This document shows, piece after piece, positions 3,419 to 62,047 of a stretch of 64,000 nucleotides of DNA. Source of the DNA: Hyaloperonospora brassicae (lineage: Eukaryota; Oomycota; Peronosporomycetes; Peronosporales; Peronosporaceae); the NCBI GenBank assembly GCA_947650285.1, contig CANTFL010001256.1, forward strand, positions 1-64,000, written 5' to 3'. The position numbers were made by a program, and so were the translations under genes. The notes under the pieces were generated by a model that was not told the origin of the DNA, searched no databases, and worked only from the letters and a program-made list of their open reading frames with translations. The stretch's first letter is position 1. Every line of letters starts with the position of its first letter.

Positions 3419-5115
3419 ATGAGTGCAGCCGGAGAACAAGCTGTCCAAGACTCAGCAGCAGGTGTCAAGTCACCTGCTGCTGCCAGTATGCAGCCTGCAA
3501 CTCCCGTAGTTGCAGGAGCACGTGTTAATCCACGTGCTGCTCCTTCACCCGCAGCTTTATATGCGGAAGGTAGTCCCATGGACCAAGATTCCACGATATA
3601 GGTGGTCTATTCTACCGAGTCGGATTCTACATCCGACTTGAAGCCGTGCTCAGAGACCGACCGTATGGTTGCGGGATCAACGACTGATGCGCCTCGTGGC
3701 AGTCTCGATAAAGACTTGCGCCATAAGATGTTCGGTTCATCCAACGAGTCTGTATACTCGTCGCTGGGTCGAATCGATCGCGCTCGTATTTGTACGAGGC
3801 GAGTGCAAATTAGATGTAAGTCCTCATGAGAATGTCGATGACTTTTCGCGGAGTCATCGTAGCCATATCCGCAGCAATACTAGGTATTGCGGGGATCGTG
3901 GTGCCAGCTCTCATGCTGACACCTCAAAGGAGGAGCAGGATCGCAACTCGTTGCGATCTGGTTTTGAAAAGAAGCCATGGATGCCAACCTTCGGTGGTAT
4001 GAGACAGTGGTATGGTTATACCACTGGGATTGTCGAATCCCACTCTTTGACTCTTCATATATCCTTGGACTTGATCCCAGTGCAAAAATTATCACAATGA
4101 TCATGACTATTGCATCAATTTTCTTTAGGCATCAATGGTACCACGGTACTTGTAAACGAGACGAGATCTCATTGGTTCAGGCGTGGAACTTGGTTATCGG
4201 CAATATTGAAAGTGTTGGCCGTGAAACTTGGCTGGAAAAACTTACTGCAGCTCGCAATAAGTTTGAGTAGAAGTCCATACCCAGTGCTCGGTTTAAATTG
4301 CATCGATTGTCTCAAGAGGCAGGTTTACCTTGCCTCTCGTGGGGAAAGAAACGTCAGAGTTTTATTGACAACTCTATTCGAGCCTTAAGGAAGGTCTTTC
4401 TTCCAAAGCAACCCTACTGGAGGGCGCGCATCTCTTCCGAAATATACGAAAGGATTGAGACATTACAATTCTTTACAAAAGCGCCAGGCGTTGGTTCGAC
4501 GATGGTTCTCCTTTTAAGGGTGGGTCTCATCGTACTGATCGACGAGGTCGGGCACATCCATCATCAGCTGGGTGCCCCGCTTTTAGCTGCTCCACGAGGG
4601 TGGATACCCCCTCCACTTGACAAGGTGACTCATCCATGATCCTAAATCATCACGGTGATTCAAGACACGCTCCACAAGGAAGCTTTGACCACCGTGTGAG
4701 TCCACCAAAAGATGTGGAGGAGTAGGAAAACCCTCCTACAAGCCGCTCGGCTCACCATCTCGACCAATACGAGATGGATCGCGCAATCGACCAATTGACC
4801 GAGGATTTAAGCACTGACGGGACAGGCGGTACGCTATGACCGATTACGTGCGGAAGCACTGCAAGGATCGTAAGGATGATCGGGCAAAGGATCGTGCCGA
4901 TTACGCCCTCGCCCAACTTCAGGTTGAGCGTGATGTCCTCTCCCTTGTGAAAGAGCTGAGGAGAGCTCGCAGATAGATCTTTGAACTACGTGGAGAGGTC
5001 TCTTCGTTACGCGTCCAGACTGATCGTCTCGAGCGCGAGCGCAGGAACATAATGGTTTTTTATTTAACGTGGGGGTTATCTTCATCGTTTAAGAGGGCTC
5101 GTATTGACAGATCCT
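3419..5115 (+). pseudogene. E3 antisense accessory gene, broken
   Basis: This plus-strand reading matches the 535-aa accessory protein of E2 (37015-38622) piece by piece, across several frames. It has an Ala-rich start at 3419, the Arg-His-x-Trp-Tyr block near 4130, the Ser-x-Glu-Ala-Gly-x-Pro-Cys-Leu block near 4310, and the coiled-coil and basic tail near 4900-5110. Stops and frame shifts interrupt it throughout (for example at 3600 and 4268). It lies between the 3' LTR and the pol remnant and runs against pol, as in E2. The function of the family is unknown. Confidence 0.8.
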
Positions 5116-6357: not shown

Positions 6358-6685
6358 TGTAATGGGCCACCCCGTTACATAAGTAGTTTCGATTAAGTTT
6401 ACATGTTACTTAAGTGGGGGTGTTACTTTCGAAGTAGCGAAAGTAGCACGTCGTATATTTTAGCTGGTTTAATGGGCTCAGTACCATTATTAGCCAGTAA
6501 GATATAGACACGTAGATTGAGTGGTTCCCATGAGTCCAAGGGAACCATTCGTACTTAGGATGATTTTAAAAGACAAAATATAAACAGAGTTAAAAATACT
6601 TAACACCTAAGACTTGGGCTTTGAGCTTCCTCAAAGCGTTAAAAAATAGTGTACGCTGAGTACGGGTTATTCTAGCCCCGTTACA
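6358..6685 (+). repeat. E1 5' LTR
   Basis: It begins TGTAATGGGCCACCCCGTTACA, a near-palindrome, and ends CCCCGTTACA. It should hold the promoter and polyadenylation signal of the element; I cannot place either precisely. Perfect hairpins include CTTTCG arms near 6425 and TGGTTCCC arms near 6510. Confidence 0.95.
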
Positions 6686-6687
6686 CC

Positions 6688-6705
6688 TGGTAGCACTTAG
6701 TAGTC
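6688..6705 (+). promoter_or_regulatory. E1 primer-binding site
   Basis: TGGTAGCACTTAGTAGTC begins two bases after the LTR. The leading TGG is the complement of a tRNA CCA end. E2, E3 and F have TGGTAGC at the same offset, so these families probably use the same or a similar primer tRNA. Confidence 0.85.
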
Positions 6706-6711
6706 CTTCCC

Positions 6712-7761
6712 ATGCCCGAGTTTGGGATGAGCGATTCGTCGTACTTTGACGCTCCAGACGTGAGTCTGGAGCACGCGACTTTTCCCCATCTCACTGGTGT
6801 TGAGTGGGATGCCCTAAATCGCCTCGCGGCGATATCGGGAGAGGCATTTGTTGTGTCGCTGATGAGATCAGCGACTCCTGATGAACAGCGTCTCGCCATA
6901 CACGTCTACATGGCTCGCGAGCTCGCCGAATTCCATCGGCGAGGTTTAACTCCCTCGCGGACTTCACGGAACGATGCCGTGAAGATGGAGACCTCCGCCT
7001 ATTCTGGCGAAGGAAAAGAACGCTTGTCGTTGTCTCGTTGGTTTCGAGAGGTCGACATCGCTATCGCCTCGAGACTTCTCGAGGCTCCTCAAGCGAAGGT
7101 CAATTTCCTTCTTTCCCGTCTCACTGGGAAAGCCAAGGAGTGGGCCTTGGGAAAACTCGTTGTTGACGAGTTTGCGTTCCCCACTCTGGAAGCCATCCAG
7201 AGTGACCTTCGACTCGCCTTCGAGCCGCCCCAAGAAGAGAAGTTGGTGCGTTCAAGGTTCCTGTCCCTGCGACAGGGTAAGATGTCCATGCGCGACTACG
7301 TGCAGATGGCTCGACATCTGGCGTCTTGTATTGTCACGCATCCCATGGACATGTATACACAAGTGAACGTGTTTGTCGATGGCATGCGTGAAGGGCAGAC
7401 TCGCCTCTCGCTGGAACGAGCAGAGCCTGCCACGTTGGAGGAGGCTTTCGCTATCGCTCTCCGTGAGGATTTCAGAGTCACCAAGGCCTATACCAAGCCT
7501 TCAGTTGTTACCGCTGTCAGATCAGCGGGCCCGGGACCTATGGAGATCGATGCAATTGAGTCGTCGGGTGACCGACGACGCGCTACAGCCTACAAGGGCG
7601 ACGTCCGAGGCGGACGTCAGATGATCTGCTTTCGATGCCGAAAGCCGGGACATCGCGCGGCTGAATGCCGCGCGCCAGCACCGATGTCGGTGCATGCGTC
7701 GGACACCCATCATGAGGGAGGTGCTCCGATCAGTCGTCCAAAAAACGGACGAGACCAGTAG
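6712..7761 (+). CDS. gag: E1 Gag (capsid-nucleocapsid)
   Basis: This 349-aa Gag would assemble the cytoplasmic virus-like particle and bind the element's RNA. The central part (about residues 100-260) has the usual Ty3 Gag features: a Trp-Phe block followed by a Leu-Thr-Gly-Lys-Ala-x-x-Trp motif, a Phe-Glu-Pro-Pro motif, and an Arg-x-Gly-Lys turn. A CCHC zinc knuckle lies at C306, C309, H314 and C319. The start is the first ATG after the primer site, 26 bases beyond the LTR. The reading frame ends in a TAG that lies inside a hairpin downstream of a slippery heptamer, so a fraction of ribosomes should continue into pol in the -1 frame. Hairpins are dense in the coding sequence, for example 6751-6772, 6855-6875 and 7066-7085. 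Confidence 0.95.
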
Positions 7762-7781
7762 GTGCAGGGCGCCCTACTGGT
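7740..7781 (+). promoter_or_regulatory. E1 -1 ribosomal frameshift cassette
   Basis: The heptamer A AAA AAC occupies 7740-7746 with the gag frame reading cca-aaa-aac, the exact phase needed. A 7-nt spacer follows. Then a perfect 9-bp hairpin forms: ACCAGTAGG at 7754-7762 pairs with CCTACTGGT at 7773-7781. The gag TAG (7759-7761) lies in the 5' arm. The -1 frame is open from the heptamer into pol. Heptamer, spacer and stem all fit the well-studied retroviral type of signal. E2 and F have the same layout. Confidence 0.85.
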
Positions 7782-10700
7782 TTGAAGAGAGGTCCGGGTC
7801 CACCGGTGGCAGCCCGACCTCCCAGCCCATCTGTGCTGCGTGCACGGTCAAATGCCACCACTACGAGTGGTGATTCACGCCTGATTATTGTTAATCTACA
7901 TGTCGCCGGTATCCGGCGACCCCTACGAGCGCTCCTGGATTCAGGAGCGACAAACAATTTCTTCCGTGAATCTTGCGTGTCAATGCTGCCACCCAGCATC
8001 CAGGTCCACGAGGGACCTGGCCAAGTTGTTGTCAAGCTCGCTGACGGGAAACCACGCCGCGTATCGCGGCGCGAAGTGTCGTTGCCGTACACGTTTGACG
8101 GCTTTCGCAGTAACGACAACTTCTTGGTGATTGAAATGAATTATGCATTCGATTGCATCCTGGGCATGCCATGGTTGGCACGCTATAAGCCCCAGATCGA
8201 CTGGTTAGCCAGATCAGTGAGACGTCGAAGCAAGTTCGACGTCAGCGAAGTGTTCACCCATCTCTTGGTGTCTCCAAGTGATTGGCCGAACGTTACAGTC
8301 GTGGATCGTACATCCACGACACCGGCGGTACACAGAGTGAGCGATGGCCCTCTCTGTAGCGCTTGTTCCGTGCCCCTACGCACGAGTGATGATGCCTCCT
8401 CGCTTTGCAGCGAGGAGTCCAACGTGGACGAGCAGTGGCTCCCACGTAATGACGACGCGGACGAGCAGTGGCTCCCGCGCAACGACGACGCGGTCGAACA
8501 GCGGTTCCCGCACAAGAGAGCAGTGGTCGAACACGAACAGGTGTTCCCACCTGTACCCATTGTGGTCGAGCAGAGGCTCCCACAAGGGCAAGACGTGGCC
8601 GAGCAGGGGCTCGCCACCGAGTGTGACGTGGATGGACAAGAGTCCCCACGTGCGAATATGATGGTCGAACAGGGGTTCCCATCATCGCCTACTGTGGTCG
8701 AACAGAGTTTCCCACATGAGCAAGACGTGGTCGAGCAGGGGCTCCCACACGAGTTTGTGGCGGTAGAGCAGGGGCTCCCGCATCATGCGTCGACGGACGA
8801 GTATGGAATACTCCCGTCGCGCGATTTCGACGTCCTGGATGAGGACATCCAGCGTCTAGAGGGGGGTGCAGATTTAACACCTGACTGCGGTTCGCCAGCT
8901 TCGAGCATGGACTCGAGGCACGATGGGGACGCAAGCTACGAGAACTCAGCGTTGGAATGTGTTCACGCTATTGTGTACGTGGACGGGAGTCCACAAAGGC
9001 GCCAATACATTGAGGTCGCGAGTCCACCTCGCGACGCGTCATCTATTACGAGCCTTCCAGGACTCTCCTGGAAGCATTTTCTACGCGACCTCAAGGGAGG
9101 CACGGTGGAACAAGTATGTCTGGTCACCAACGAGGTGACTCATGAGCCGAATGAGGAGCTAATGACGCGCCCTCGAAGCGCTGAAAAGAAATCAGCGCGC
9201 GAAGAAAGATTTGCGTCGCAATCTTGGGAGGCTCTGCGCGAGTCTGGTAACCCTGTTTACGACATTGCACGAGAGTACGCCGACGTGTTCCCGGACAAGA
9301 TTCCGGCCGAACTCCCTGCCGATCGTGGCGTGCGGCACGAGATTGATCTCGTGCCAGGATCGAAATATTGTGTGACACGGCAGTGGCCGTTGCCTCGAGA
9401 CCAAGTCGAGGCTATTGATGCATTCTTCGAAGGTCGTCGCAAGGCCGGTCATGTGCGTGAGAGTGTCTCTCCCCATTCGAGTCCAACCTTCTGCGTGAAG
9501 AAGGCTACGGGAGGCTGGCGTATAGTGCATGCGTTTAACAAGCTCAACGATGCCACTATTCCTGCCCAAACGCCTATCCCCAGGAAAGACATGGTTCTAA
9601 ACTCCATGTCAGGTAGCGTCATCTTCAGCGCCATCGATCTGACCGATGGCTTCTACCAGATCTTGATGCGACAGAGTGACATACCACTCACTGCGGTGAG
9701 CACCCCGAGTGGTATGCTTTGGGAGTGGCTGGTGATGCCACAAGGATTGAAGAACGCACCAGCCACTTTCAATCGCATGGTATCTCAAGTGTTGAGACCG
9801 CTTCGAGACTTTGCTCCTAGCTACTTCGATGACATCTTTGTCCACAGTCGCGCTGAGGGCAATCTCAGTGCTGTCCAAGTTCACCTTCAACACCTGAAGC
9901 AGGTGTTTCAAGTCATGCGAGATAACAAGTTATATGCAAACTTGAAGAAGTGTGTATTCTGTGCACCGGAGATTCCGGTGCTGGGCTGCTACGTGAGTAA
10001 ATCGGGTGTTCGAGCCGATCCAGAGAAGGTGTCGTCAATCTGTTCTTGGCCCACACCCAAGAACCCTACGGAGTTACGTCAATGGCTCGGTCTAGCTAAT
10101 TACTTGCATAAGTACACAAAGGATTACGCCGGTTCTATACAGCCCCTGTCGTCACTTCTGAAGAAAGACGCCACGTGGTCGTGGCGTCCCGAACATCAAG
10201 CAGCCTTTGACGCAGTGAAGAAAAGCCTGGCGTCGGCGCCAGTGTTGATACTCCCTGACGACACCAAACCGTTTCACGTGGTGTGTGATGCAAGTGACTT
10301 TGCAATTGGTTGCGCCCTCATGCAGTTCGATCACGAGGGCCGTGAACGAGTCGTGAGCTATCAGTCACGACAGATGAAGCCGGCAGAGAAGAACTATCCG
10401 GTTCACGATAAGGAACTGCTAGCGATGCGCTACGCACTCATCAAGTTTCGTGTCCACCTACTGGGCGAACGCACGTTCGCCCTGTATACTGATCATGCAT
10501 CGCTGCGGACAGCAATGAAGAGCCCACACCTGTCACAGCGGATGGCACGGTGGCTCTCTTTCTTCTCCGAGTACAACTTCGTCGTGCACTACAAGCCAGG
10601 CAAGACCAACATTCTTGCTGACGCACTGTCACGACGCCCAGATTACGATCCTCGTATGGCACTGAGTCGTCAGGCAACTGACGACGACGATGAAGACGAT

Positions 10701-13103
10701 CGATGTGCGACGTGTGTGTCGTTGAATCTAACTCGGGTCACACCCGAGTTATGCCTTTTCGATGAAATTGTCGCGGCTTACGCGAACGATCCAGATTATG
10801 CGGACATTATTGCCTATCTGCGCGCTCCCAGCGATGCTGCACTGGGAGCTCTTTCGCGAACGAAGCGTGATCACATTCAACGATACAGTATGGACGGTGA
10901 TTTGCTGTTATATAGCATCGACAAATTCGATGCGCCTCGAACTGTGATTGCGAATGACTTGGATTTGCGTGCTCGTATCATCCACGAGTACCATGATGCC
11001 CCAATTGGCGGTCATCTGGGCCGCGAAAAGACATTCGCGGCTGTCTCGCGCGACTTCTTCTGGCCCCACATGTACAAGTGGGTTCGCAACTGGGTTCGCA
11101 CCTGCGAAGTATGTCAGCGCGTGAAGCCATCACCATCGTCGCAGGCACCCCTGCGACCCCTGCCAATTGCAGCTGAGGCTTGGAGCTCAGTCTCAATGGA
11201 TTTTATCTTCGGGCTTGCACCAGATGGCCAAGACCGATCGGGTATTCTGGTCTTTGTCGACAGATTCAGCAAGATGACACATCTGGTGCCTGTTCATGCA
11301 ACGATCACCGCGGCTGAGACCGCGGTGCACTTCATTGACACTGTGTTTCGCCATCACGGTCTTCCAGACAACATTGTCTCGGACCGTGATCCTCGTTTTA
11401 CATCTGCTTTTTGGACGTCATTGTTCGAGTTGCTTGGCACAAAGCTGCAAATGTCGACAGCAGCCCATCCGGAAACGGATGGGCAAACAGAGAGAGTTAA
11501 TCGGGTCCTCGAAGATGTTCTTCGAAGTTACGCAACGTCCTTTACAAGTTGGAGTGCGTTTTTGCCACTCGCGGAGTTTGCACTCAACAACGCGGTTCAC
11601 GCGTCAACGGGGTTGACGCCATTTTTTGCAAATTCGGCCCGTCATCCTCGTGTACCTACCCTTCTTGCCGTGGGTCAACCCACGGCTCTTCGTGGCTCCA
11701 CTCTGGCGGGGGGTGATAACGATAAACAACGATCGAGTGAAGCTCACGGTATTCTGAGCGCGAATGTTGTCAACCATTCCAAGGCGAAGTCTTCTGTTTC
11801 GACGCCACGTGACGTGGCGTCCCCGATAGCTCAATGGACTACACAGACGCTGATCGACCCTTCTTCGAGTATGCGAAACCCTAAAGCTAACTACGCGCCG
11901 ATTGAATCGGCGCGACCAATTGATGACATGGCTGTGTCAGAGTTTATACTCCAACGTCAAGCCATCACGAGGTTTGTACGCGATACTCTTCGATCTGCAG
12001 TGGATAAACAGAAAGCGAATGCAGACAAACGTGGAAGAAAGAACACGAGTACATTCAAGAAAGGTGATCGTGTATTGTTATCTACCGAAGGCCTACGAGA
12101 TTCAGCAGTAACCAATCTAGGCGCGAGCAAACTCGCGCCACGTTTCATCGGACCATTCACGGTACTCAAGGCAATCGGCGACGCATACACACTGGCCATC
12201 CCTTCGTCACTGCGACTTCACCCGACGTTTTACGTCGGGCGGCTCAAGGAGTACCGTCCAGCTACGCTTCACGGGTTGGCTCCGTCCTCGGAGTCAAAGG
12301 CTCATAGGTCGACCTTCCCTCTCGCCTTGCTCGACGCACCAGCGACATCGGACGCGGCTGCGTCCCAGCCTGCGCGTGCCCAAGAACCTGGCGTTCCAGG
12401 TTCCGCATCCGTTCAAGCAGCTCGCGGTTCGACTGTCGAATCTCGTTCGCTGTTCTCTCAGCCCGCGCAGCTCGGTCAAGGGCAGCTTCAGCCTCCAGCT
12501 GGGCATCGACAGCCTTGTTCACAGCCGCATCTACATCGTCCTGGGCAACCAGGACGCCAGCAGTACCATCGTGAGGGTCCACCACCGCTTGTGGACGCGG
12601 AAGGCCAGAAGCGCTGGATTGTGGAGCGTTTACTGGGTCACGAGGACCCTCGTCGTGAAACGACATCGTCGCGACACCATGAGCGCGCGGTTCCAACCGC
12701 GCGCAAGTATCGTGTACGTTGGCTCGGGTTTCCACCCGAGCAGGATACGTGGGAACCGCGCTCTTCGCTTCTTCGAGACGTTCCGGACCTCGTTCGGGCT
12801 TACGAGTCCCTGCACACGCTTGGTGTAGACTTGGTCGACGACCTGTGTGTTCTCGCGGTGAGCGAGAACGAGATGCACGACGACGGTGTCGTGGTGAAGT
12901 GTCACCACGACTACGAGACCGAGAGCGATTGCGAGAACGTCGTGGTGACGTTTCACCACGACGACAAGATGAAGAGCGACGACGAGAACGTTGCGAAGAG
13001 CGTGTATCGCGACGATCACGCGAACGAGAACGTCGTGGCGATTGCACGGCACCACGACCTCGAGAACGCGAGTGGTGTCGCCAGCGTGACGCGCCACGAT
13101 TAA
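7746..13103 (+). CDS. pol: E1 Pol polyprotein (PR-RT-RNase H-IN-chromodomain)
   Basis: Pol has no useful ATG at its start; the frame enters at the slippery site, and residues are numbered here from the TTG at 7782 (1773 aa). Protease Asp-Ser-Gly-Ala is at 53-56. Eleven degenerate Glu-Gln-x-x-Pro repeats fill about 215-337. RT has Tyr-Phe-Asp-Asp at 681-684. RNase H has its first Asp near 836, with Glu-Leu-Leu-Ala-Met and Thr-Asp-His-Ala-Ser following. Integrase has an HHCC finger ending Cys-Glu-Val-Cys, and the catalytic triad D1140, D1201, E1237 (exact D35E spacing). GPY/F motif, then a linker, then a chromodomain at about 1611-1675 (Trp-Glu-Pro near 1657). The last 70 residues are rich in Asp, Glu, His and Val and lie opposite the SR-rich part of the accessory gene. 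No stops or frame breaks were seen. Confidence 0.95.
8424..8790 (+). repeat. Degenerate 11-14-codon repeats in E1 pol
   Basis: About eleven units centred on Glu-Gln-(Trp/Gly/Arg/Ser)-(Leu/Phe)-Pro separate the protease from RT. Each unit holds a local gtcgaacag or gtcgagcag word. Most Ty3 pols have a short linker here; in E2 the corresponding linker shows no such array. The role is unknown; it could be a flexible spacer or a binding platform. Confidence 0.85.
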
Positions 13104-13641
13104 CCGCAGTCTTGCGCTCCACCAAGCTGCGCTCGTACCGTCCTATCCAGAGCTGTTCATAATCGCTGAGTGGATACTCAGCGACGTGTCGTTTCCAAGC
13201 TTCGCGAGTTGGACGAGGCACCGAGTCACAGGAGTAACAAGATTCGTGCACGTGAACGTAGCAGAGTCGATCTACGTTCCAGGCGTTTTCACAGATCTTC
13301 TCGCGCAGTACACCGATGGAATGATCGGCGTGGATATCTTCGCGATTGGCCAGCCACTGCTGAAAGTTCCTTCCGTCTTCATGCATCCGGTTCCACCGCC
13401 GGATGAACGCACACCATGACCGCTGGAGTGACTCGTATGAGATTCCATCAAGTCTCTTTCCGCGCAACCCACGGAAACGACGGAAGTAGTCCTGCATCGT
13501 TTCGAGAGAGTCCGGAGACCGAGCTCCGGACAAGTCATACAGCGCCCAAGGGATCAGGTGCTGATCCATCACGCGGTCGACCAAACTCCCGCTGATTGTG
13601 CGCGGGAGTGCTGTTTTGTTGGCGTCTGCGTCTTCAGTCAT
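12262..13641 (-). CDS. E1 antisense accessory protein (CxxC, SR-rich, coiled coil)
   Basis: This 459-aa frame runs opposite to gag-pol. Its ATG lies 77 bp from the 3' LTR and its stop lies beside the GPY/F coding region. Residues 1-179 are encoded outside pol, so that stretch serves only this gene. That half has a Trp-rich helical block (about 60-105) and a Cys pair at 135 and 138 (another Cys at 127). Residues about 186-266 are an Arg/Ser-repeat region like those of splicing factors. Residues about 368-422 are a heptad-rich coiled coil. No signal peptide or membrane segment is visible, so an envelope protein is unlikely. Genes in the same place and orientation occur in E2, E3 and F, which argues that it is real. 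I do not recognise the family; RNA binding in the nucleus is a guess from the SR tract. Confidence 0.75.
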
Positions 13642-13704
13642 CGTTCGGCTTGTGAGTCGTTAAAGTCTTGTGGTTGAGCACTCACGGTTGGTGAGTGCTG
13701 TCTT

Positions 13705-13717
13705 GAGAAGGGGGTGA
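13705..13717 (+). promoter_or_regulatory. E1 polypurine tract
   Basis: GAGAAGGGGGTGA, almost all purine, abuts the 3' LTR and would prime plus-strand DNA synthesis. E2 has AAGGGGGGTGA at the same place. Confidence 0.85.
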
Positions 13718-14044
13718 TGTAATGGGCCACCCCGTTACATAAGTAGTTTCGATTAAGTTTACATGTTACTTAAGTAGGGGTGTTACTTTCGAAGTAGCGA
13801 AAGTAGCACGTCGTATATTTTAGCTGGTTTAATGGGCTCAGTACCATTATTAGCCAGTAAGATATAGACACGTAGATTGAGTGGTTCCCATGAGTCCAAG
13901 GGAACCATTCGTACTTAGGATGATTTTAAAAGACAAAATATAAACAGAGTTAAAAATACTTAACACCTAAGACTTGGGCTTTGAGCTTCCTCAAAGCGTT
14001 AGAAATAGTGTACGCTGAGTACGGGTTATTCTAGCCCCGTTACA
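13718..14044 (+). repeat. E1 3' LTR
   Basis: It is 327 bp and almost identical to 6358-6685: differences are one G/A near 13775 and an A-run change (gttagaaatag versus gttaaaaaatag) near 14000. Its right end is followed by the agcac duplication at 14045-14049. Confidence 0.95.
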
Positions 14045-36493: not shown

Positions 36494-36884
36494 TGTAACG
36501 GGGCACACCCTTGCGTAACTTAACGCAAGGGTTTTGAGTGCCCCGACAGACGTACACGTGGCAAGCGAGGAAGCGTAGGTAGGGTAAAAGTAGAACTGTT
36601 ATATTAATAAATTAAGTCTTTAAACTACTGTCTCTTCGTTTGACTTAATTCAATTATACTAATATAACTGCATGTATGGTGACGTCTCGTCACCACTCAT
36701 TGCGCGCGTCTTGCGGCGATTGGTGGGTTGATATCATCACGATATCAACCAATGAACAGACCCTTTGGTCGACCCTTCAATATCACCACTTTGGTGATAT
36801 TGTTTTAAAGAATATCCATCTTTATATTCTTTATTGTCACTTTCCTTAAAGTGACAATTTCATGTAACGGGCTGCCCCGTTACA
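36494..36884 (-). repeat. E2 3' LTR
   Basis: It has perfect 12-bp terminal inverted repeats (TGTAACGGGGCA / TGCCCCGTTACA). It is full of hairpins: 36508-36531 (9 bp), 36726-36750 (10 bp), 36778-36802 (10 bp), 36836-36855 (8 bp) and the terminal near-palindrome 36863-36884. Confidence 0.95.
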
Positions 36885-36898: not shown

Positions 36899-37014
36899 TG
36901 ATAGTCACCGTGTGACTATCGAAAACATGGAGGCCACCCGTTGGCCACCATTGGGACAGGGAGCACTTGTTGGGTCCGTTCCATTCACTTTCCGCTTGAC
37001 CTCGCATAGTTAAC

Positions 37015-38622
37015 ATGTCTATGCGAGGTGACTCAAGACCCACACAGCCTGGTGCTGTGCAAGCCTCTGCGGCAGACGCTTCGTCGTCTGCCGCCCCTTC
37101 TTCGCCTGCAGCAACAGGTGCTGCAGGTGCACGCGGTATCACACCGCGTGCGCACGATGACCCTGATGTAGAGGTCATCTACTCTGGCGAGTCAGACGTG
37201 TCTGACTCGGGCAATGCTCCAGAGGCGTCTCGCTCACCGGCGACGCCTCAGTATTCGCCAAGACCACTGCCGAACGAACGGACTCGTGATTTGCATCACA
37301 GTCTGTTCGGCAGTGATGATGATGATGATCAGGGTGGTGAGTTCTATTCTTCACCACCGCCGGCTCGTGCGTCTTCGCACGAGCGTGATGACGATGGCGC
37401 GAGCCGTCGTCAATCTGGGAGCCGTGGTACCGACAAGGGTACCACTGTGAAGCGTGATGAGTTGAAGCCGTGGCGTTTGCCCGAACAACTCATCAATAGC
37501 CTGTCTCACGAGACAGGCCAACACCATCGAATACCCTTATTCGATGCAACCGAGCTTCACGGCTTGAGTCCCAGCGCGAAGAACTTTCGCGCTGAAGAAG
37601 ATTTTTATCTCGATGTCTTTCTTAGACATCGATGGTACAACAGCAACCAAAAGCGTGACAAAACATCGCTTTTGGCTGCGTGGAACGCGTTCGTCCAAAA
37701 CGTAAAGAATTTTGGACGAGAAGGGTGGCTCAAGAAACTTGAGGCAACACGCCTCAGGTTCGAACGGCGAACGCCAACCGGTGCTAGGTACCGGTTGCAT
37801 TGTTTATCGAGTGAGGCAGGCATTCCTTGCCTCACATGGGGAGACCCTTGTGCGAGTTGTGTTGACAACTCGCAGCGTGCACATAGGGATGTGTACTCCC
37901 TAAATTCGCCCTGGGGAAGGGCACACATCTCGGCTGAGATGCGTGACGCGATTGCAAACTTGCAATCCGTCTACAAGCGCCTAGGGCGCGTGTTTACCGA
38001 TGGGCCACAGGACTCATCGGATGGGTCTCGTCATACTGGCGGACGAGACCTTCAACATCCATCAACAGCTGAGAGCGGGGCTCCCAGCTGTTCCAAGAGG
38101 GTGGATACCCCCGCCACTGGACGAGGTAGCTCGTCCTTGATCCTGAATCGTCACGGTGATTCAAGATACGCTCCACTAGAAAGCGTTGATCACCGTGAGC
38201 ATCCACCAAAGGATGTGGTGGAGGAGGAAAGACCTCCTCCAGATGATTCTGTTCACCATCTCGACCCTTACGAGATGGATCGCGCAATCGATGAATTGCG
38301 CGATGACTTGAAGCACGAGCGCGATCGGCGCTACGCTTTGACCGATACCGTGCGGAAGAACCGCAAGGGTCACGAGGCTGATCGGGCGAGGGATCGCGCC
38401 GATTATGCCACGGCGCAGCTTCAGGTCGAGCGGGATGTCCGCTCCCTATTCGGCGAGCTGGCGACAGCTCGCGGGGAGATATCTCGGTTGAATACCGAGG
38501 TATCATATCTGCGCGACCAGACGGATCGTCTGGAGCGCGAACGCAAGAACTTGATGGATGTTCTTGAACGTGGGGGCTATCTTCATCGGAAGAAGAAGGC
38601 TCGTACTGACAGTACGACCTAA
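37015..38622 (+). CDS. E2 antisense accessory protein (Cys-rich core, coiled coil)
   Basis: This intact 535-aa frame runs against gag-pol. The ATG lies 131 bp from the 3' LTR and the stop lies beside the GPY/F coding part of pol. Residues 1-150 are Ala/Ser/Asp-rich and probably disordered. Residues about 150-320 form the likely domain: Arg-His-Arg-Trp-Tyr near 204, an Ala-Trp-Asn-Ala-Phe block near 221, and Cys at 263, 272, 279 and 282 (the last two a CxxC). Residues about 418-517 are a long charged coiled coil, then a basic Lys/Arg tail near 524-530 that could be a nuclear signal. The first 326 codons lie outside pol. E3 keeps a broken copy, and E1 and F have genes in the same place. The family is unknown to me; its conservation in position and plan makes chance openness unlikely. 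Confidence 0.78.
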
Positions 38623-39226
38623 GCCTCCCCACGTAAAACGTAGGATGCGTGCGCATCCTACGTGGCAATTCGAGTGTGTATGCATTGCCCTTGCGATGCA
38701 ACACTCGAAATGGCCCAATGTATTTCGGCAGTAGTTTACTACTGCCGACACTAGTGACTGCATGTCCAGGTAGGTTTACCGTTGACAGTAGTACTAGGTC
38801 GTTAACCTTAAATGAAAGAACATTTGCTCTTCCATTCTTGTCTGCGTTCCGTTTCTGACGGTCCACCGCATTTGCGATGGAGTCCTGAACGAAACGGACT
38901 ACCGCTTCTCGAGTCAGCAGGAAGTTCTCTGCTGACTCTTTGTTTTGTCTGGCAGTGCGCTTCGTGCGCACTGCTAAGAGATTGCTCTCTTCTTCAGCGA
39001 GGTTGTCTTCTTCCTCGCTGACATAATCGTTGGCGATGCTGAATATACCAGCATCGTCATCATCATCCGAATCAATAATAGCGTCTTCGCTATTATTGAG
39101 ATGATCTTCTTCATCGATGTCGACTTGATCGACATCGGCATCATACGTGACGACGTTTGCGTCGACACGTGATGAGCAAGAGCCAAAACGGTTTTTGCTC
39201 GAGCGAGTCCCTCCCCCCTTATCCAA
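37994..39226 (-). CDS. pol: E2 Pol, 3' part after a frame break (GPY/F, chromodomain)
   Basis: This frame continues pol after the break near 39,220. It holds an acidic stretch, the block leading to Asp-Arg-Gln-Lys-Arg-Asn-Ala-Asp, the Tyr-Ile-Gly-Pro-Phe GPY/F motif, His-Pro-Thr-Phe-Tyr-Val-Gly-Arg-Leu, an Arg/Pro/Ser-rich linker of about 150 residues, and a chromodomain ([11 protein letters not shown]) near its end. The linker lies exactly opposite the coiled coil of the accessory gene. It has no separate start signal; it should be read as one protein with the upstream part in an intact sister copy. Confidence 0.9.
38638..38663. repeat. 11-bp perfect hairpin where the E2 genes converge
   Basis: ACGTAGGATGC and GCATCCTACGT flank a 4-nt loop, 16 bp past the stop of the accessory gene and inside the pol coding sequence. 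E3 keeps it near 5334-5360 with one arm mismatch. E1 has an 8-bp hairpin (CCCGACGT arms, 12221-12239) at the matching place. It might mark the 3' end of the accessory transcript. Confidence 0.7.
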
Positions 39227-42200
39227 GAGTTACACTCTATAAGGGTGGGCACTCGTGGATGGCGTAGGCCATTCACGTAAAACGGTGTGTGCTGTGTTGA
39301 AGCATGCACCGAATTATTGATGGCGAATTCCACCATGGGTAGGAATTCGCTCCAACTCGGAAACGAGTGGACATATCCTCGAAGAATCTCTTCGAGGACA
39401 CGGTTCGCACGTTCCGTCTGACCATCTGTTTCTGGATGGTCAGAAGTGGACATCTTCAATCGTGTTCCGAGAGTACGGAACACGGTTTGCCAAAATTCCG
39501 CCGTGAACCGAGGGTCACGGTCGGATACGAGTTCACGGGGTAACCCGTGGAGTCTAAAGACCGTGTCTAGAAAGACACGAGCACAACCTTGAGCCTTGAT
39601 TGACTCAGGGACAGCAGCAAGATGGACCATCTTGCTGAATCGGTCTACAAACACAAGAATACCATTATTCTTGTGAGCGTCTTCAGGAAACCCGAAGACG
39701 AAGTCCATTGAAACGGACTGCCAGCACTCTGTCGGAACAGGCAGAGGCTGCAATGGCGCACGGGATGAAGGACTAGGCTTCACCCGTTGACAAACTTCGC
39801 AAGCACGTATGTACTTGCGAACAAACTGATACTGGCGGGGCCAGTAAAAGTCACGACTTACCGTGAGGTAAGTCTTTTCCCTTCCACGATGGCCGCTTGT
39901 TGGGGCATCGTGACACTCATACATGATGCGCAACCGCAAATCATGATGAGCGGGTACGACGACACGAGGCGTGTCGTCGGCAACAGCTGTATAGTACAGC
40001 AATCCGTTGCGTGTACTATACCGATCCGATGAGGATCGGTACAAAGCCGGTAAATCCCTCATGGATTTACTGGATGGATTCACCAGATGATCCATCAATC
40101 GCAGAAGATCCTTATCTTCCGCGTATGCCTTTCGTACGTCGTCAAGTAAACTTGACGACGGGACACTGACTGACAGTGTCGCAACAGTGGGCTTATCCTC
40201 ACTGTTGGATTGTGCGTCCGGCTCGAAATCGGGCCGGCGCGAAAGAGCATCCGCGACGACATTGAGTCGTCCCGGTTTATACTCCACGGAGAAGTTATAC
40301 TCCGCGAAGAAAGACAGCCACCTCGCCATTCTTTGCGAGAGGTGTGGGCTGTTTACGGCCGTGCGTAATGACGCATGGTCCGTGTAGACAACAAACGGTC
40401 TATCTCCCAAGAGATAGACGCGAAACTTAGCCAGTGCGTATTTCATGGCAAGGAGTTCCTTGTCATGCACTGGGTAATTACGCTCAGCTGCTTGCAGCTG
40501 ACGCGACTGATAACAGATGACGCGCTCCGCGCCATCTGCATCGAACTGCATTAACGCACAGCCGATTGCGAAATCGCTGGCGTCACAGACCACATGAAAT
40601 GGTCTGTCCTGATCTGCAATCGCCAAGATCGGCGATTGCATCAAGCTCCGCTTGATACCTTCAAAGGAACGCTGGCACTCAGCGTTCCATGACCACTTGA
40701 CATTTTTCTTGAGCAAGCAAGAAAGATGAACAGTCATCTCGGCGTAGTTGCGCGAGTACTTGTGCAAGTACGCCGCAAGACCAAGGAACTTCCTTAGTCC
40801 CTTGACATCGACTGGCACTGGCCAGTCGGTGATCGCCTTGATCTTTTCGGGATCAGGGCGTACGCCGTGTTTACCCACGATGCACCCAAGAAGTGGTATT
40901 TCGCTAGCCGCGAATATACACTTCTTGAGGTTGGCGTACAACTTATGCTTGCGCATAAGTTGAAGAACCTGACGAACGTGAGTTCTGTGAACTTCAACGT
41001 CCGTCTTTCCGTCCATAGCCCGGCTATGGACGAACACATCGTCGAAGTAACTCGGTGCGAAGTCTCGCACCGGTCTCAACAGATTTGTTACACATCTGTT
41101 GAATGTTGCAGGGGCATTACTCAGCCCCTGTGGCATCACTAGCCACTCCCACAGCATCCCGCTGGGGGTACTCACTGCCGTGAACGGGACGTCCCGTTCA
41201 CGCATCAGGATCTGATAGAATCCATCCATCAGATCCATGGACGAAAAGATGGTACTCTTTGACATACCATCTATGATTACGTCCTTCCTCGGTATCGGCG
41301 TCTGAGCCGGTACCGTTGCAGCATTCAACTTGTTGAATGCGTGCACTATCCGCCACCCTCCTGTGGCCTTTCGCACACAGAAGGTCGGAGAGCTGTGAGG
41401 GGATGTTGATTCCCTCACATGGCCCGCTGCTAAGCGATCGGCAAAGAACTTGTCGATCGCTATCACTTGTTCACGAGGCAGTGGCCACTGCTTCATGACA
41501 CAGTATTTCGAGCCCGGTTTGAGCTCGATCTCGTGTCGAGTGCCTTTGTCCTTAGGCAACTCGCAAGGTACGGATTCAGGGAACACATCCCTGAATTCGA
41601 TCAAATCCTTATACAAAGGATTTGCCTGAAGTGACTCCCAGGATTGGGACGCGTATCGCTCAATCCGAGTCTTCTCATCGAGGACACTTTCGTCCATCGA
41701 TGAGCTGCTGAGAACCCGTTCGTTCTCAGCAAATACTGTTGCCGACCGAATGTCGGTCACATACTCGTCCTCTGTGACGAGTATGCAGATCTGCTTGACT
41801 TTGCCACTACGCAGATCACGCAAGAACCGTTTCGGTTCTAGCGTTGGCAACTGAGTTATCTCCGAAGTCAACTTCGGAGGCACAATCAGATCAAGCGTAT
41901 AAGCGCCTACGCTTGATCCGTCATTAACCAAGACGTTCAACGTCTCGGTTTCTTCCTGGGAACTTGCTTCCACAGGTTGCTGAGGGCCTAATCCCTCAGC
42001 AAGCGACTCTTGAGGAATTCCTTCCTCAAGTACGTGGGGACTTATTCCCTCGACGTCTTCCGACTGTGGCTGTGCAACCACAGTCAGGAACCGATCCTCT
42101 ACGGTCGACTCTCCAGTCGACCTAGGATTTTCATGTTGCCCCTTGGGGGCAACAGACTTCTTTCTTCTAAGATGCTGCCCGCTAGGCATGCATCCATGTC

Positions 42201-42909
42201 CCGGTCCACTCGACTTATTCGAGTGGTGGACCTTCGGCGCAGCCTGTACTTCTGTACAGCCGCCGGGAGCTTGCTCCACAGTGTAGTGATCAACTACACT
42301 GTGATCTTGTGCAGTCGTGCTAACGACCGTACCGCAAGTGAGGCCATCGCACTCACTCGCAGAACATCCACACGCTTGTGGACGCTCCAAGATGTTCATC
42401 AGATGGCCATCTGATGAACAAGCAGCAGGCATCTTCACGGATCGATGCTGCCAGCTCACCCTTGGCTCGTACTTTCTGAGCCAAGGTAATCCCAGGATGA
42501 CATCAAATTTGTCATCCAGATCTAGTACGATGAAGTCATCATCGTACTGTTCGCCCTCTAACGTGTAGTGGATTCCTACTACACGTTTCTCAACGGTTAT
42601 CGATGCGCCTGTTGCAAGGCGCACCGTCATCCTTGTGAGGGGAATGTCGCGCTCAACGAACTTGAGCCTACGACCCTCTAGTGACTGGCGACGAACAAAG
42701 TTGTTCGACGCCCCACAGTCTACTAGGGCACGAAGCGACAAATCATTTGTCGCTTCCAACTTCAAGGTGATGAGCGAAACGTCATCACCAGGTGCAGAGA
42801 CACACAATGATTGTGTATCTGGAGCAACTTTCGTCAAGAGATTTGCAAATTCTCTTGAGGTTGCTGGATCAGTAGGGCGCTCCGCCCCTACTGACCCCGA
42901 CCATTTTTT
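38974..42909 (-). CDS. pol: E2 Pol, 5' part (PR-RT-RNase H-integrase)
   Basis: The frame enters by -1 frameshifting at the heptamer ending at 42903; residues are counted from the TTG at 42837. The protease motif is Asp-Cys-Gly-Ala at 40-43 (Cys where Ser or Thr is usual). RT Tyr-Phe-Asp-Asp is at 597-600. RNase H has Val-Cys-Asp-Ala-Ser, Glu-Leu-Leu-Ala-Met and Thr-Asp-His-Ala-Ser. Integrase has His-Asp-Ala...His, Cys-Glu-Val-Cys, and Asp, Asp and Glu with D35E spacing, ending His-Pro-Glu-Thr-Asp-Gly-Gln-Thr-Glu. After the His-Pro-Arg-Val-Pro-Thr-Leu block the frame leaves the pol sequence at the G run near 39,220 and ends in nonsense at 38974. Confidence 0.93.
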   Translation of the reverse strand, partial: KKWSGSVGAERPTDPATSREFANLLTKVAPDTQSLCVSAPGDDVSLITLKLEATNDLSLRALVDCGASNNFVRRQSLEGRRLKFVERDIPLTRMTVRLATGASITVEKRVVGIHYTLEGEQYDDDFIVLDLDDKFDVILGLPWLRKYEPRVSWQHRSVKMPAACSSDGHLMNILERPQACGCSASECDGLTCGTVVSTTAQDHSVVDHYTVEQAPGGCTEVQAAPKVHHSNKSSGPGHGCMPSGQHLRRKKSVAPKGQHENPRSTGESTVEDRFLTVVAQPQSEDVEGISPHVLEEGIPQESLAEGLGPQQPVEASSQEETETLNVLVNDGSSVGAYTLDLIVPPKLTSEITQLPTLEPKRFLRDLRSGKVKQICILVTEDEYVTDIRSATVFAENERVLSSSSMDESVLDEKTRIERYASQSWESLQANPLYKDLIEFRDVFPESVPCELPKDKGTRHEIELKPGSKYCVMKQWPLPREQVIAIDKFFADRLAAGHVRESTSPHSSPTFCVRKATGGWRIVHAFNKLNAATVPAQTPIPRKDVIIDGMSKSTIFSSMDLMDGFYQILMRERDVPFTAVSTPSGMLWEWLVMPQGLSNAPATFNRCVTNLLRPVRDFAPSYFDDVFVHSRAMDGKTDVEVHRTHVRQVLQLMRKHKLYANLKKCIFAASEIPLLGCIVGKHGVRPDPEKIKAITDWPVPVDVKGLRKFLGLAAYLHKYSRNYAEMTVHLSCLLKKNVKWSWNAECQRSFEGIKRSLMQSPILAIADQDRPFHVVCDASDFAIGCALMQFDADGAERVICYQSRQLQAAERNYPVHDKELLAMKYALAKFRVYLLGDRPFVVYTDHASLRTAVNSPHLSQRMARWLSFFAEYNFSVEYKPGRLNVVADALSRRPDFEPDAQSNSEDKPTVATLSVSVPSSSLLDDVRKAYAEDKDLLRLMDHLVNPSSKSMRDLPALYRSSSDRYSTRNGLLYYTAVADDTPRVVVPAHHDLRLRIMYECHDAPTSGHRGREKTYLTVSRDFYWPRQYQFVRKYIRACEVCQRVKPSPSSRAPLQPLPVPTECWQSVSMDFVFGFPEDAHKNNGILVFVDRFSKMVHLAAVPESIKAQGCARVFLDTVFRLHGLPRELVSDRDPRFTAEFWQTVFRTLGTRLKMSTSDHPETDGQTERANRVLEEILRGYVHSFPSWSEFLPMVEFAINNSVHASTQHTPFYVNGLRHPRVPTLIECNSWIRGEGLARAKTVLALAHHVSTQTSSRMMPMSIKSTSMKKIISIIAKTLLLIRMMMTMLVYSASPTIMSARKKTTSLKKRAIS
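42869..42909 (-). promoter_or_regulatory. E2 -1 ribosomal frameshift cassette
   Basis: On the minus strand A AAA AAT occupies 42909-42903 with gag reading tca-aaa-aat. An 8-nt spacer follows. TCAGTAGGG (42894-42886) pairs with CCCTACTGA (42877-42869) around an 8-nt loop. The gag TAG (42890-42888) is in the 5' arm. The -1 frame is open into pol and encodes the same Val-Gly-x-x-Arg-Pro-Thr peptide as E1. Confidence 0.83.
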
Positions 42910-44042
42910 GATGGTCCGTCTCGCTGTTGCGGCTTCGCAACAGCGCTGGACCCACGCCCATTGCCCTTTCTGGCAAAAGGTCGTCCATTTCGCTCAGTAC
43001 TGTTTGGTACTGGGCGTGGAGCACTACACTCGTATGCGTAGTGCCCTAACTTCTGACAGCGATTGCACCTCTGCAATCGCTTGTTGTTTGTAGAGCGAGG
43101 TCTCTCGCTCTCAACATAGCAGAGGTCCATTGGTTCTGGACCTCCGATCTCTTGTCGTCTCGGTGGACGGTAAGAGTTTGAGCTAGCATGAGCCTGTCTC
43201 ATGCTAAAGTCTTCCTGTTCCGCGGCTGATATCGCTTCTTCAAGCGTATTCAGCTCAAGGCGGAACAGGTGGCTCCTGACGGGCCCTTCTGCGAGCCCTT
43301 GCATGAACACCGTAATCAACGTGTGTTCATGTACTGGGTTGGCAGTTATACTACTCGCAAGGAGTCGTATATGTTGTGCGTAAGCGTGCACATCACGCTT
43401 ACCCTGCTTGAGTTTCAGGAGCTCTGAGCGAGCCCTGAACTCAGCACGTGGCGGCTCAAACGTTTGTCTGAGCCGGGACTTGAAGTCATCTAGCGACCTA
43501 AACACATTTGGGTCGCTACTCTCGAGTCCCAGGGACCAAGTTTTGGCACGCCCTGCCAAGTGGGTCTGAGCAAATGTGAGTTTCATTTGCTCATCTTCGA
43601 CGCGACGAGCCCTTAGGGCTCTGTCGAGTTCGACAAACCATAGTAACAGGGAGTCCTCCGGGACTCCACTGTACTTGGAGATGTCGACTTTCATGACTTC
43701 GGGACGACGCGCATGCGCCGTCCCGCCCACAGCAGCATGGAATTGCTGCTGTCTCAACAGCTCCGTCTGTTGAGCACCGAGTTCTCTCAACTGCTCGGCC
43801 TGTTGAGAGCCTTGCTGGTGAAGCAAGGCTACTTTCTCCCTCTCGAGAGCAAGTTCATTCTGAATGAACTTGGCGATAGCGGCATGTTGTTGGTCTCTGT
43901 CTAGAGACTCCAACATGGTGCTGACGACGAGTTCGCCTACGGTAGAACTCATTCGTTCTACCGCACCCCATTCGATGTCACTCAAATGGGTAAACCCTTC
44001 ACGCGTGGCGTGAAAGGTGTCTTCTTCATCCAACATGTTCAT
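42888..44042 (-). CDS. gag: E2 Gag (capsid-nucleocapsid)
   Basis: This 384-aa Gag has a Gln/Glu-rich N-terminal coiled coil (about 55-100), the capsid core (about 115-270) with Leu-Leu-Leu-Trp-Phe-Val-Glu, Leu-Ala-Gly-Arg-Ala-x-x-Trp, Phe-Glu-Pro-Pro and Lys-x-Gly-Lys-Arg landmarks, and a CCHC knuckle at C326, C329, H334 and C339. The basic tail ends at a TAG in the frameshift hairpin. The ATG (44042-44040) lies within a perfect 11-bp inverted repeat (44027-44050, 2-nt loop), which might damp initiation; a second in-frame ATG is two codons on. The frame is fully open, unlike the E3 copy. Confidence 0.95.
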   Translation of the reverse strand: MNMLDEEDTFHATREGFTHLSDIEWGAVERMSSTVGELVVSTMLESLDRDQQHAAIAKFIQNELALEREKVALLHQQGSQQAEQLRELGAQQTELLRQQQFHAAVGGTAHARRPEVMKVDISKYSGVPEDSLLLWFVELDRALRARRVEDEQMKLTFAQTHLAGRAKTWSLGLESSDPNVFRSLDDFKSRLRQTFEPPRAEFRARSELLKLKQGKRDVHAYAQHIRLLASSITANPVHEHTLITVFMQGLAEGPVRSHLFRLELNTLEEAISAAEQEDFSMRQAHASSNSYRPPRRQEIGGPEPMDLCYVESERPRSTNNKRLQRCNRCQKLGHYAYECSAPRPVPNSTERNGRPFARKGNGRGSSAVAKPQQRDGPSKNGRGQ

Positions 44043-44086: not shown

Positions 44087-44477
44087 TGTAACGGGGCACA
44101 CCCTTGCGTAACTTAACGCAAGGGTTTTGAGTGCCCCGACAGACGTACACGTGGCAAGCGAGGAAGCGTAGGTAGGGTAAAAGTAGAACTGTTATATTAA
44201 TAAATTAAGTCTTTAAACTACTGTCTCTTCGTTTGACTTAATTCAATTATACTAATATAACTGCATGTATGGTGACGTCTCGTCACCACTCATTGCGCGC
44301 GTCTTGCGGCGATTGGTGGGTTGATATCATCACGATATCAACCAATGAACAGACCCTTTGGTCGACCCTTCAATATCACCACTTTGGTGATATTGTTTTA
44401 AAGAATATCCATCTTTATATTCTTTATTGTCACTTTCCTTAAAGTGACAATTTCATGTAACGGGCTGCCCCGTTACA
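44087..44477 (-). repeat. E2 5' LTR
   Basis: It appears identical to 36494-36884 over all 391 bp, so the insertion, or a recent recombination between copies, is young. Confidence 0.95.
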
Positions 44478-60130: not shown

Positions 60131-60230
60131 TGCCATCGTTTGCTATATCCGTATCAGGCGGTCAAGCTGAGCCTACATCCGAGCTTGGCATAAACTCCAA
60201 TAACTGGACACGGGCTTGGCCCAACTACAA

Positions 60231-61509: not shown

Positions 61510-62047
61510 TGTAACGGGGTTACACGTCGACAAATAGTCGACATTAGATGTGGTGCACACAAGGGATGGGATCCCATTTAAAGTGATATAAGAACACAGT
61601 GTCATTTGTTGAAAACTGATGTCTGTCAACCATTGATTACGAGATCTAATTTGTGAAGTTTTGTTCAGGACATTAGCGAGTAGGTTAATTACGTTGTTCT
61701 AAGGTGTTCCTTTACGTTAAAAGAAGAAATAAAATTCAGTTCCCATTTTAAGCCGAAAGACACATCCCACTCTGAGGCATCTTGTGATCGTTTGAGGAGG
61801 TATCAACGCCTTGTAAAGGCAGATACCCCTCGTGCACTCTGTGCGTTGATTCTCTGAATCGTTTGGTCCCCATGGAACAGAGACCGTAATCTCTCTGATC
61901 TTGTTGACTCTTTGGGTCGGGCTCTCCGAGCTAAACCTTAGCTCTTTGTCATATTTGACTCTCTGATTCGGGTTCATCAAACGAAAACTTGCTCGTTGAG
62001 CATTTAAGTCCTCCCTTGACCTAAGGATCTATGTACTTTCGCTACAG
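61510..62047 (+). repeat. F 3' LTR
   Basis: 538 bp, TGTAACGGGGTTACA at the start and CGCTACA at the end, matching the rejoined 5' LTR and the window-edge fragment at 1-171. Confidence 0.9.

What the first reader, a model, noticed from the sequence alone, without database searches (positions are those of the whole stretch)
12262..13641. An accessory gene runs against pol in E1, with equivalents in E2, E3 and F
Seen: in E1 (12262-13641), E2 (37015-38622), E3 (3419-5115, broken) and F (60231-61402, broken) a gene on the strand opposite gag-pol starts 75-190 bp inside the 3' LTR and ends beside the GPY/F coding region. Its first 180-330 codons lie outside pol, in DNA with no other use. Shared plan: helical domain with Trp and a CxxC pair, disordered middle, C-terminal coiled coil. 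Known: antisense extra ORFs are described in some plant LTR elements, but I know of no named family with this plan. Inference: a transcript from the 3' LTR region makes a regulatory or nucleic-acid-binding protein and an RNA complementary to the 3' end of the pol mRNA.
Basis: partly seen in the sequence, partly recalled or inferred. Interest (0 to 1): 0.88.

Follow-up and report, generated by a model that had tools for sequence, protein, structure and literature searches.

The report
Antisense accessory gene in oomycete retrotransposons
Recently active jumping genes in an oomycete (water mould) genome carry an extra protein gene on the opposite strand, partly written on the reverse side of another gene; selection has kept the protein in two of these families, but what it does is still unknown.

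Summary
Both are Ty3/Gypsy chromodomain LTR elements with a gene running against pol (459 and 535 codons). It starts 76 or 130 bp inside the 3' LTR edge and stops within about 10 nt of the GPY/F-coding edge. E3 is a broken E2-like copy. F is broken too, but relatives L062 and L063 carry it open, as a third protein family with the same layout and no CxxC.

It is a real protein gene. Outside pol, dN/dS is 0.21 (E1, one relative) and 0.15-0.47 (E2, 11 relatives), all intervals below 1. Named homologues occur in Phytophthora, Peronospora and Hyaloperonospora, without Pfam domains. In the 70 loci fetched, best aORF and pol matches are antiparallel in 70. F's selection test is not decisive.

E1-E2 protein homology is suggestive only. 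Best mechanism (inferred): an antisense mRNA from near the 3' LTR encodes a nuclear, nucleic-acid-binding regulator that works like HTLV HBZ or plant Grande gene23. No transcript could be tested.

Antisense genes at this position are known in plants and a fungus; this is a new variant. Separately, E1 and E2 are packed with perfect short hairpins.

The parts
12262..13641 (-). E1 antisense accessory gene (459 aa); codons 1-179 outside pol
13072..13584 (-). E1 N-terminal helical domain with C117, C127, C135, C138
   Evidence: alignments A3 and A5; AlphaFold2 pLDDT 78.7; no usable Pfam, PDB-sequence or fold match
12832..13089 (-). E1 arginine/serine-rich stretch, opposite the pol C-terminal tail
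   Evidence: sequence; identity to L022 42% here and 25% in the pol tail opposite, but to L021 80% and 81%
12412..12546 (-). E1 C-terminal zipper-like stretch, opposite the GPY/F-chromodomain linker of pol
   Evidence: sub-threshold Pfam Alanine_zipper match, residues 366-410
6712..7761 (+). E1 gag
   Evidence: Pfam Retrotrans_gag, zf-CCHC
7782..13103 (+). E1 pol (PR-RT-RH-IN-GPY/F-chromodomain)
   Evidence: Pfam
6358..6685 (+). E1 5' LTR
   Evidence: self-BLAST 99.1% to the 3' LTR
13718..14044 (+). E1 3' LTR
13677..13699 (.). perfect inverted repeat (arms 9) between aORF start and 3' LTR
37015..38622 (+). E2 antisense accessory gene (535 aa); codons 1-326 outside pol
37447..38019 (+). E2 conserved domain with H262, C272, C279, C282
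   Evidence: alignments A4, A6 and A7; AlphaFold2 pLDDT 63.8
38269..38520 (+). E2 C-terminal zipper-like stretch, opposite the GPY/F-chromodomain linker
   Evidence: sub-threshold Pfam Lzipper-MIP1 match, residues 419-502
38974..42837 (-). E2 pol, main frame
   Evidence: Pfam
37994..39226 (-). E2 pol, second frame with GPY/F and chromodomain
   Evidence: Pfam
42888..44042 (-). E2 gag
   Evidence: Pfam
36494..36884 (-). E2 3' LTR
   Evidence: 100% identical to 44087-44477
44087..44477 (-). E2 5' LTR
36900..36920 (.). perfect inverted repeat (arms 9) between 3' LTR and aORF start of E2
4034..5114 (+). E3: broken remnant of an E2-type antisense gene
   Evidence: tblastn pieces; profile matches E 7.5e-24 and 1.3e-23
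60071..61400 (-). F: broken remnant of a third antisense gene family, open in L062 and L063 (limits placed by homology)
61510..61946 (+). F 3' LTR
   Evidence: 97.7% to 53115-53550

Best explanation
Shown: in E1 and E2 the ORF is a genuine accessory gene of oomycete chromodomain Ty3/Gypsy elements, under purifying selection, encoded against pol between the GPY/F edge and the 3' LTR. Its N-terminal domain lies in DNA that pol does not use; its zipper-like C-terminus lies opposite the pol linker between GPY/F and the chromodomain. Inferred: an antisense mRNA starting in or just inside the 3' LTR is translated into a nuclear, self-associating, probably zinc-binding protein that binds the element's own nucleic acid (LTR DNA or genomic RNA; in E1 helped by an RS-rich arm) and tunes transcription or RNA fate, as HBZ does for HTLV-1 and as has been proposed for the plant Grande and Retand antisense proteins.
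For: dN/dS outside pol: E1 vs L021 0.21 (0.12-0.36); E2 vs 11 relatives 0.15-0.47, all upper limits 0.75 or less; other frames, tested for L021, L042 and L045, gave 0.91-3.58 in four frames of five. Homologues: 28 for E1, 25 of the 28 with a named source, all oomycetes; 9, then 47, for E2. Conserved Trp, Arg and Cys positions. No stop inside 65 of 81 scored E2 matches (the most similar of 3756 candidates) and 32 of 102 listed F rows covering at least 421 codons. Best aORF and pol matches antiparallel in 70 of 70 fetched loci. Against L022 the chromodomain is 51% identical and the aORF opposite 26%, the pol tail 25% and the RS stretch opposite 42%. Spacing [C/H]x9-C-x6/7-C-x2-C in both families.
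Against: No transcript, localisation or binding data. dN/dS of the part over pol is 1.11 (0.67-2.05) for E1 vs L021 and 0.29-1.52 for E2 pairs. The frame that shares wobble positions also gave low values, 0.27-0.56. Against L021 the RS stretch (80%) is no better kept than the pol tail opposite (81%). F selection is not separable from control frames. No usable fold match for the E1 domain; the E2 model was not searched. Zinc binding rests on residue pattern; C117 is Tyr in L021 and C135 is Tyr in P0026, and F lacks the CxxC. E1-E2 homology is not established.
Confidence: 0.55

Rival explanations
1. The antisense RNA itself is the effector: convergent transcription makes dsRNA over the 3' end of pol and feeds or buffers small-RNA silencing; the protein is secondary.
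For: In P. infestans small RNAs map along two abundant Gypsy elements in both orientations (PMC3522703, passages); a review of plant elements proposes dsRNA regulation (PMC7264820).
Against: An RNA role does not explain dN/dS of 0.15-0.47 outside pol, nor protein homologues across genera.
Confidence: 0.12
2. The protein helps particles or integration (nuclear import of the pre-integration complex, RNA chaperoning, integrase targeting) rather than regulation.
For: Basic, zipper-ended, Cys-containing protein; the review discusses nuclear import of the pre-integration complex next to these antisense proteins (PMC7264820).
Against: A separate antisense mRNA rather than a gag-pol product is an odd route for a stoichiometric particle part (inference).
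Confidence: 0.18
3. The protein counters host silencing of the element.
For: Oomycete LTR elements are small-RNA targets (PMC3522703); the protein varies fast outside its conserved core.
Against: No feature specific to this role was found.
Confidence: 0.12
4. Spurious antisense ORF produced by pol codon usage.
For: 280 of 459 codons in E1 and 209 of 535 in E2 lie opposite pol; overlap dN/dS near 1 in E1.
Against: 179 and 326 codons lie outside pol under purifying selection, and the N-domain is the best kept part of the aORF between E1 and L022 (46%).
Confidence: 0.02

Closest known systems
[quoted passage not shown]
   Same: Position, orientation, conservation across species, function unknown; Retand antisense ORFs also give Smc and Mis12 annotations, and E2 here gives a sub-threshold Mis12 match.
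   Different: Retand is a non-chromovirus lineage with a pol-3' LTR region of 2.9-6.6 kb. Here the carrier is a chromodomain element, the gene overlaps pol up to GPY/F, and no PF04195 match was found.
HTLV-1 HBZ (PMC10186651, passages)
   Same: Antisense gene expressed from the 3' LTR side, C-terminal zipper, nuclear; the proposed role is alike.
   Different: No bZIP match; HBZ is a 31-kDa protein, these are larger; overlap with pol rather than with the env-side genes (recalled for HBZ); promoter not tested here.
Botrytis Boty antisense gene brtn (named in the review PMC7264820; its paper seen only as a title in the references of PMC8365987)
   Different: Sequence not compared here.
Oomycete Chronos elements (PMC5348765, passages)
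   Same: Oomycete Ty3/Gypsy with a chromodomain after integrase.
   Different: Chronos has a second, archaeal-type RNase H, not seen in E1 or E2 pol. The main text has 0 occurrences of 'antisense'.

Membership tests
[quoted passage not shown]
   here it also runs into pol
Retand/TRP28 antisense proteins | Pfam PF04195 domain | tested here: not met
   not among matches up to E 1 for the E1, E2, L062 and L063 proteins or the A3 and A4 members; very weak relatives could be filtered out
Retand/TRP28 antisense proteins | carried by a non-chromodomain (non-chromovirus) element | tested here: not met
   E1, E2 and L062 pol have a chromodomain; no RT tree was made
[quoted passage not shown]
   no expression data
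HBZ | bZIP domain | tested here: not met
   only sub-threshold zipper or coiled-coil matches, no bZIP family up to E 1
HBZ | antisense transcript starting in the 3' LTR | not testable with these tools
   ATG is 76-130 bp internal to the LTR; transcript start unknown
SR proteins | RS-rich region | tested here: met
   E1 residues about 185-270 and several homologues, by inspection; not in E2
SR proteins | RRM domain | tested here: not met
   no RRM match up to E 1
Chronos | additional archaeal-type RNase H plus chromodomain | tested here: not met
   only Gypsy-type RNase H models match E1 and E2 pol
One common protein family for E1 and E2 aORFs | significant profile similarity | tested here: inconclusive
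   hhalign P 0.036-0.041; 5 of 100 column-shuffled profiles reach the score; W-AF and Cys positions align in order
Known fold of the E1 domain | match in the PDB | tested here: inconclusive

The most novel reading that the evidence does not exclude
Three lineages of chromodomain elements in one oomycete genome have placed an antisense regulator in the same slot: its zipper is written on the reverse strand of pol's GPY/F-chromodomain linker and its stop codon is held at the GPY/F edge. The dimeric protein reads palindromes of the LTR and the aORF leader (a perfect inverted repeat lies between LTR and start codon in 11 of 18 loci scanned, from all four element types), so that antisense gene, operator and hairpin-laden element form one autoregulatory system.
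Probability: 0.15. Interest if true: 0.82.

Novelty: new variant of a known kind. Interest (0 to 1): 0.62.

Why it matters
In the papers I saw, antisense genes of LTR elements are described for flowering plants, one fungal element and retroviruses, with functional data mainly for HTLV. An oomycete family with recent insertions, high copy number and measurable purifying selection gives another setting in which to ask what such genes do, and a clear case of two genes sharing one stretch of DNA on opposite strands. It also says what some 'hypothetical proteins' of Phytophthora and downy mildews are; one E2 relative is listed as an RxLR effector candidate, so effector counts may be touched.

Tried and rejected
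Chance ORF: rejected for E1 and E2 by selection outside pol. Host gene without a retrotransposon: in all 70 loci fetched the pol match lies opposite, but these are a sample (28 E1-type, 32 E2-type, 10 F-type loci), picked by aORF match for E1 and E2 and by DNA match for F. Known domain: Pfam, PDB sequences and, for the E1 domain only, PDB folds gave nothing usable; the E2 model was not fold-searched and the viral library was not used. One protein family for E1 and E2: tried, not established. F in the window: no domain match; settled through relatives. F selection: dN/dS 0.33-0.92 outside pol over nine pairs, five with intervals below 1 (L065-L069), but control frames, run for three pairs, gave 0.36-2.13, several as low, so it is not used as proof. 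Leader palindrome as a special operator: weakened, because such repeats occur all over E1 and E2 and 6 of 18 loci lack a perfect one (L021, L042, L046, L049, L051, L052; L044 not placed). Selection on an RNA fold as cause of the hairpins: weakened, because G.U and A.C changes are equally common. Pairs not used: near-identical copies L001-L020 and L038, and L043, L044, L050, L057, L059. Uninformative pairs: L022 vs L024 (nine differences) and E1 vs L022 (synonymous sites saturated). One search stopped with an error before its E2 pol comparison; its L021 rows for GPY/F and linker are mostly gaps. Papers: titles and abstract starts listed (of which 79, 85 and 86 listed only 12 of 48, 10 of 35 and 10 of 26) showed none on antisense ORFs in oomycete elements; only open-licence PMC papers are held, so this is weak.
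Full report
What is there. The window holds several nested LTR elements. E1 (6358-14044) and E2 (36494-44477, on the minus strand) are Ty3/Gypsy elements with gag, pol, GPY/F (Pfam SH3_Tf2-1) and a chromodomain. Their LTR pairs are 99.1% and 100% identical, so both look like recent insertions (inference). On the strand opposite gag-pol each has a long ORF whose ATG lies 76 bp (E1) or 130 bp (E2) from the inner edge of the 3' LTR and which runs back into pol. 'Inside the 3' LTR' in the finding must be read as 'on the internal side of it'.

Geometry. In E1 the ORF ends at 12262 and the GPY/F match at 12257. In E2 the ORF ends at 38622 and the GPY/F match begins at 38612. The chromodomain lies opposite aORF codons about 278-343 (E1) and 338-389 (E2). 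The zipper-like C-terminus (sub-threshold Pfam matches) lies opposite the linker between GPY/F and the chromodomain. In the F relative L062 the antisense frame ends at 1491 and the GPY/F match at 1501.

E3 and F. E3 keeps three broken pieces of an E2-type gene at 4034-5114. In F (LTRs 53115-53550 and 61510-61946) no domain profile matched. A DNA search listed F copies at 79-83% identity (40 scored of 724 candidates). Of nine fetched besides the window's own, L062 and L063 have a 433-codon antisense ORF, and L070 a 372-codon open frame that covers part of it. The L062 protein gave 102 matching rows in the genome; 32 have no stop over at least 421 codons, two of them 97-100% and the other thirty 85-90% identical to L062. 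It has no Pfam match and no CxxC.

Is it a gene. In the part outside pol, pairwise dN/dS (Nei-Gojobori) was 0.21 (0.12-0.36) for E1 against L021. For E2 it lay between 0.15 and 0.47 against 11 of the 16 diverged open relatives held (L042, L045-L049, L051, L052, L055, L058, L060), every interval below 1. The same DNA read in the other five frames, done for L021, L042 and L045, carried 3 to 33 stop positions per frame and gave 0.91-3.58 in four frames. The fifth, antisense and sharing wobble positions, gave 0.27, 0.54 and 0.56. Two comparisons were uninformative: L022 vs L024 (nine differences) and E1 vs L022 (synonymous changes saturated). In the part over pol, dN/dS was 1.11 for E1 vs L021 and 0.29-1.52 for E2 pairs. 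For F it was 0.33-0.92 outside pol over nine pairs, while control frames run for three pairs gave 0.36-2.13; for F the open frames, not dN/dS, carry the argument.

Spread. The protein database gave 28 relatives of the E1 protein, 25 of them named: Phytophthora capsici, P. infestans, P. cactorum, P. idaei, P. fragariae, P. rubi, P. megakarya, P. nicotianae, Peronospora matthiolae, Peronospora destructor and Hyaloperonospora arabidopsidis. For E2 it gave 9, then 47 with an alignment query; the named ones are Hyaloperonospora arabidopsidis, H. brassicae and Peronospora matthiolae. In each search only about 8000 candidates were scored. In the window's own genome the E1 protein has 110 matching stretches, 22 of them without a stop over residues 1-458 or 1-459. 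For E2, 65 of 81 scored matches have no stop; these are the most similar of 3756 candidates, so the share is not that of all copies. In the 70 fetched loci the best aORF and pol matches were found in all and lay on opposite strands in 70. The genome carries no name here. The partial Peronospora matthiolae relative is 82% identical to the E1 protein in the alignment (the search's own BLAST column says 52%), which points to a downy mildew (inference).

Protein. The E1 N-domain alignment (10 members) has many invariant Trp, Arg and Cys positions. AlphaFold2 gives an all-helical model, pLDDT 78.7. E2 (7 members) has invariant H262, C272, C279 and C282; its model is weak, pLDDT 63.8. The spacing [C/H]x9-C-x6/7-C-x2-C is common to both, and the profile alignment places these cysteines and the SLxxxWxAF motif in the same order. 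Its score, 19.1, was however reached by 5 of 100 column shuffles; reversing the profile gave 12.9. The first Cys is Tyr in L021 and the third is Tyr in P0026. I rate E1-E2 homology likely but unproven, and zinc binding as inferred. No Pfam, PDB-sequence or (E1 only) PDB-fold match was usable. E1 has an RS-rich stretch and ends in a basic segment; E2 ends in a lysine/arginine cluster kept in several relatives. Both read as nuclear-type signals (inference).

Two genes in one stretch. Between E1 and L022, aORF identity is 46% in the N-domain, 42% in the RS stretch, 26% opposite the chromodomain and 36% over the C-terminus; pol identity is 72% in GPY/F, 32% in the linker, 51% in the chromodomain and 25% in the tail. 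So, against L022, the chromodomain wins its stretch, the RS arm wins the pol tail, and the linker is shared. Against the closer L021 the chromodomain again wins (97% over 80% opposite), but the RS stretch (80%) and the pol tail (81%) are equal.

How it most likely works. Shown: gene, selection (E1, E2), geometry. Inferred: an antisense mRNA from the 3' LTR or leader, translation, nuclear entry, self-association, nucleic-acid binding and control of the element. The closest functional model is HBZ of HTLV-1, expressed from the 3' LTR and acting in the nucleus on LTR transcription (PMC10186651, passages). The closest positional class is the plant antisense aORFs, one of which, Grande gene23, is nuclear and has its own promoter (PMC7264820, parts 1 and 2 of 3 of the text; PMC11963269, passages). 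Rivals are an RNA-based role (small RNAs on both strands of P. infestans Gypsy elements: PMC3522703, passages), a particle or integration role, and anti-silencing.

Novelty. The positional class is known, including a fungal case. The protein families, the oomycete chromodomain carrier and the overlap with pol up to the GPY/F edge were not in the paper lists I could search (titles and abstract starts, open-licence papers only). New variant of a known kind.

A second, unexpected feature. E1 and E2 are crowded with perfect inverted repeats (arms of 8 or more, loop up to 12): 56 in E1 (7.3 per kb) and 111 in E2 (13.9 per kb, 34% of its bases), with 4.8-5.5 per kb in the E3 parts and 0-0.83 per kb in the rest of the window. 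Dinucleotide shuffles of six stretches gave about 0.13-0.32 per kb. Loop length peaks at 4-5. Three false-complement controls gave 18, 11 and 18 in the whole window against 223. In E2 stems compared with 11 relatives, 55 of 81 two-sided changes restore Watson-Crick pairing, against 10-18 of 53-67 for slid partners (cells, not independent events). One-sided changes give G.U and A.C about equally (77 and 80 distinct types), so selection on an RNA fold is not the obvious cause; copying of one arm from the other during reverse transcription would fit (inference). The ten F loci have 0-1.1 per kb.

Noticed in passing
6358-14044 and 36494-44477; L021-L060: Extreme density of perfect short hairpins through LTRs, gag and pol of E1 and E2 (7.3 and 13.9 per kb; shuffles 0.13-0.32), with compensatory changes but no G.U preference; 0-1.1 per kb in ten F loci.
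   Followed up: partly
6358-6379, 13718-13739, 36863-36884, 44456-44477: LTRs of E1 and E2 share a terminal palindrome TGTAAYGGG-N4-CCCGTTACA (8 matches counting both strands, 0 expected); L062 has a shorter version.
   Followed up: partly
37994-42837: E2 pol is split over two frames in the window; of 41 E2-type rows, 36 show an open frame of 1339 aa or less and 5 one of 1601-1666 aa: a shared frame break or a programmed shift.
   Followed up: no
P0041 and P0037: Relatives of the E2 antisense protein in Hyaloperonospora arabidopsidis are named 'RxLR effector candidate protein' and 'Core-binding (CB) domain-containing protein': probably retrotransposon genes counted as host genes.
   Followed up: no
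23732-24507: Direct-repeat family of 7 copies, mostly 93 bp apart, 62-79% identical to the reference copy.
   Followed up: no
17699-28519: Nested, partly inverted repeats of 1.5-3 kb at about 95-99% identity, lying between the two E3 LTR copies.
   Followed up: no
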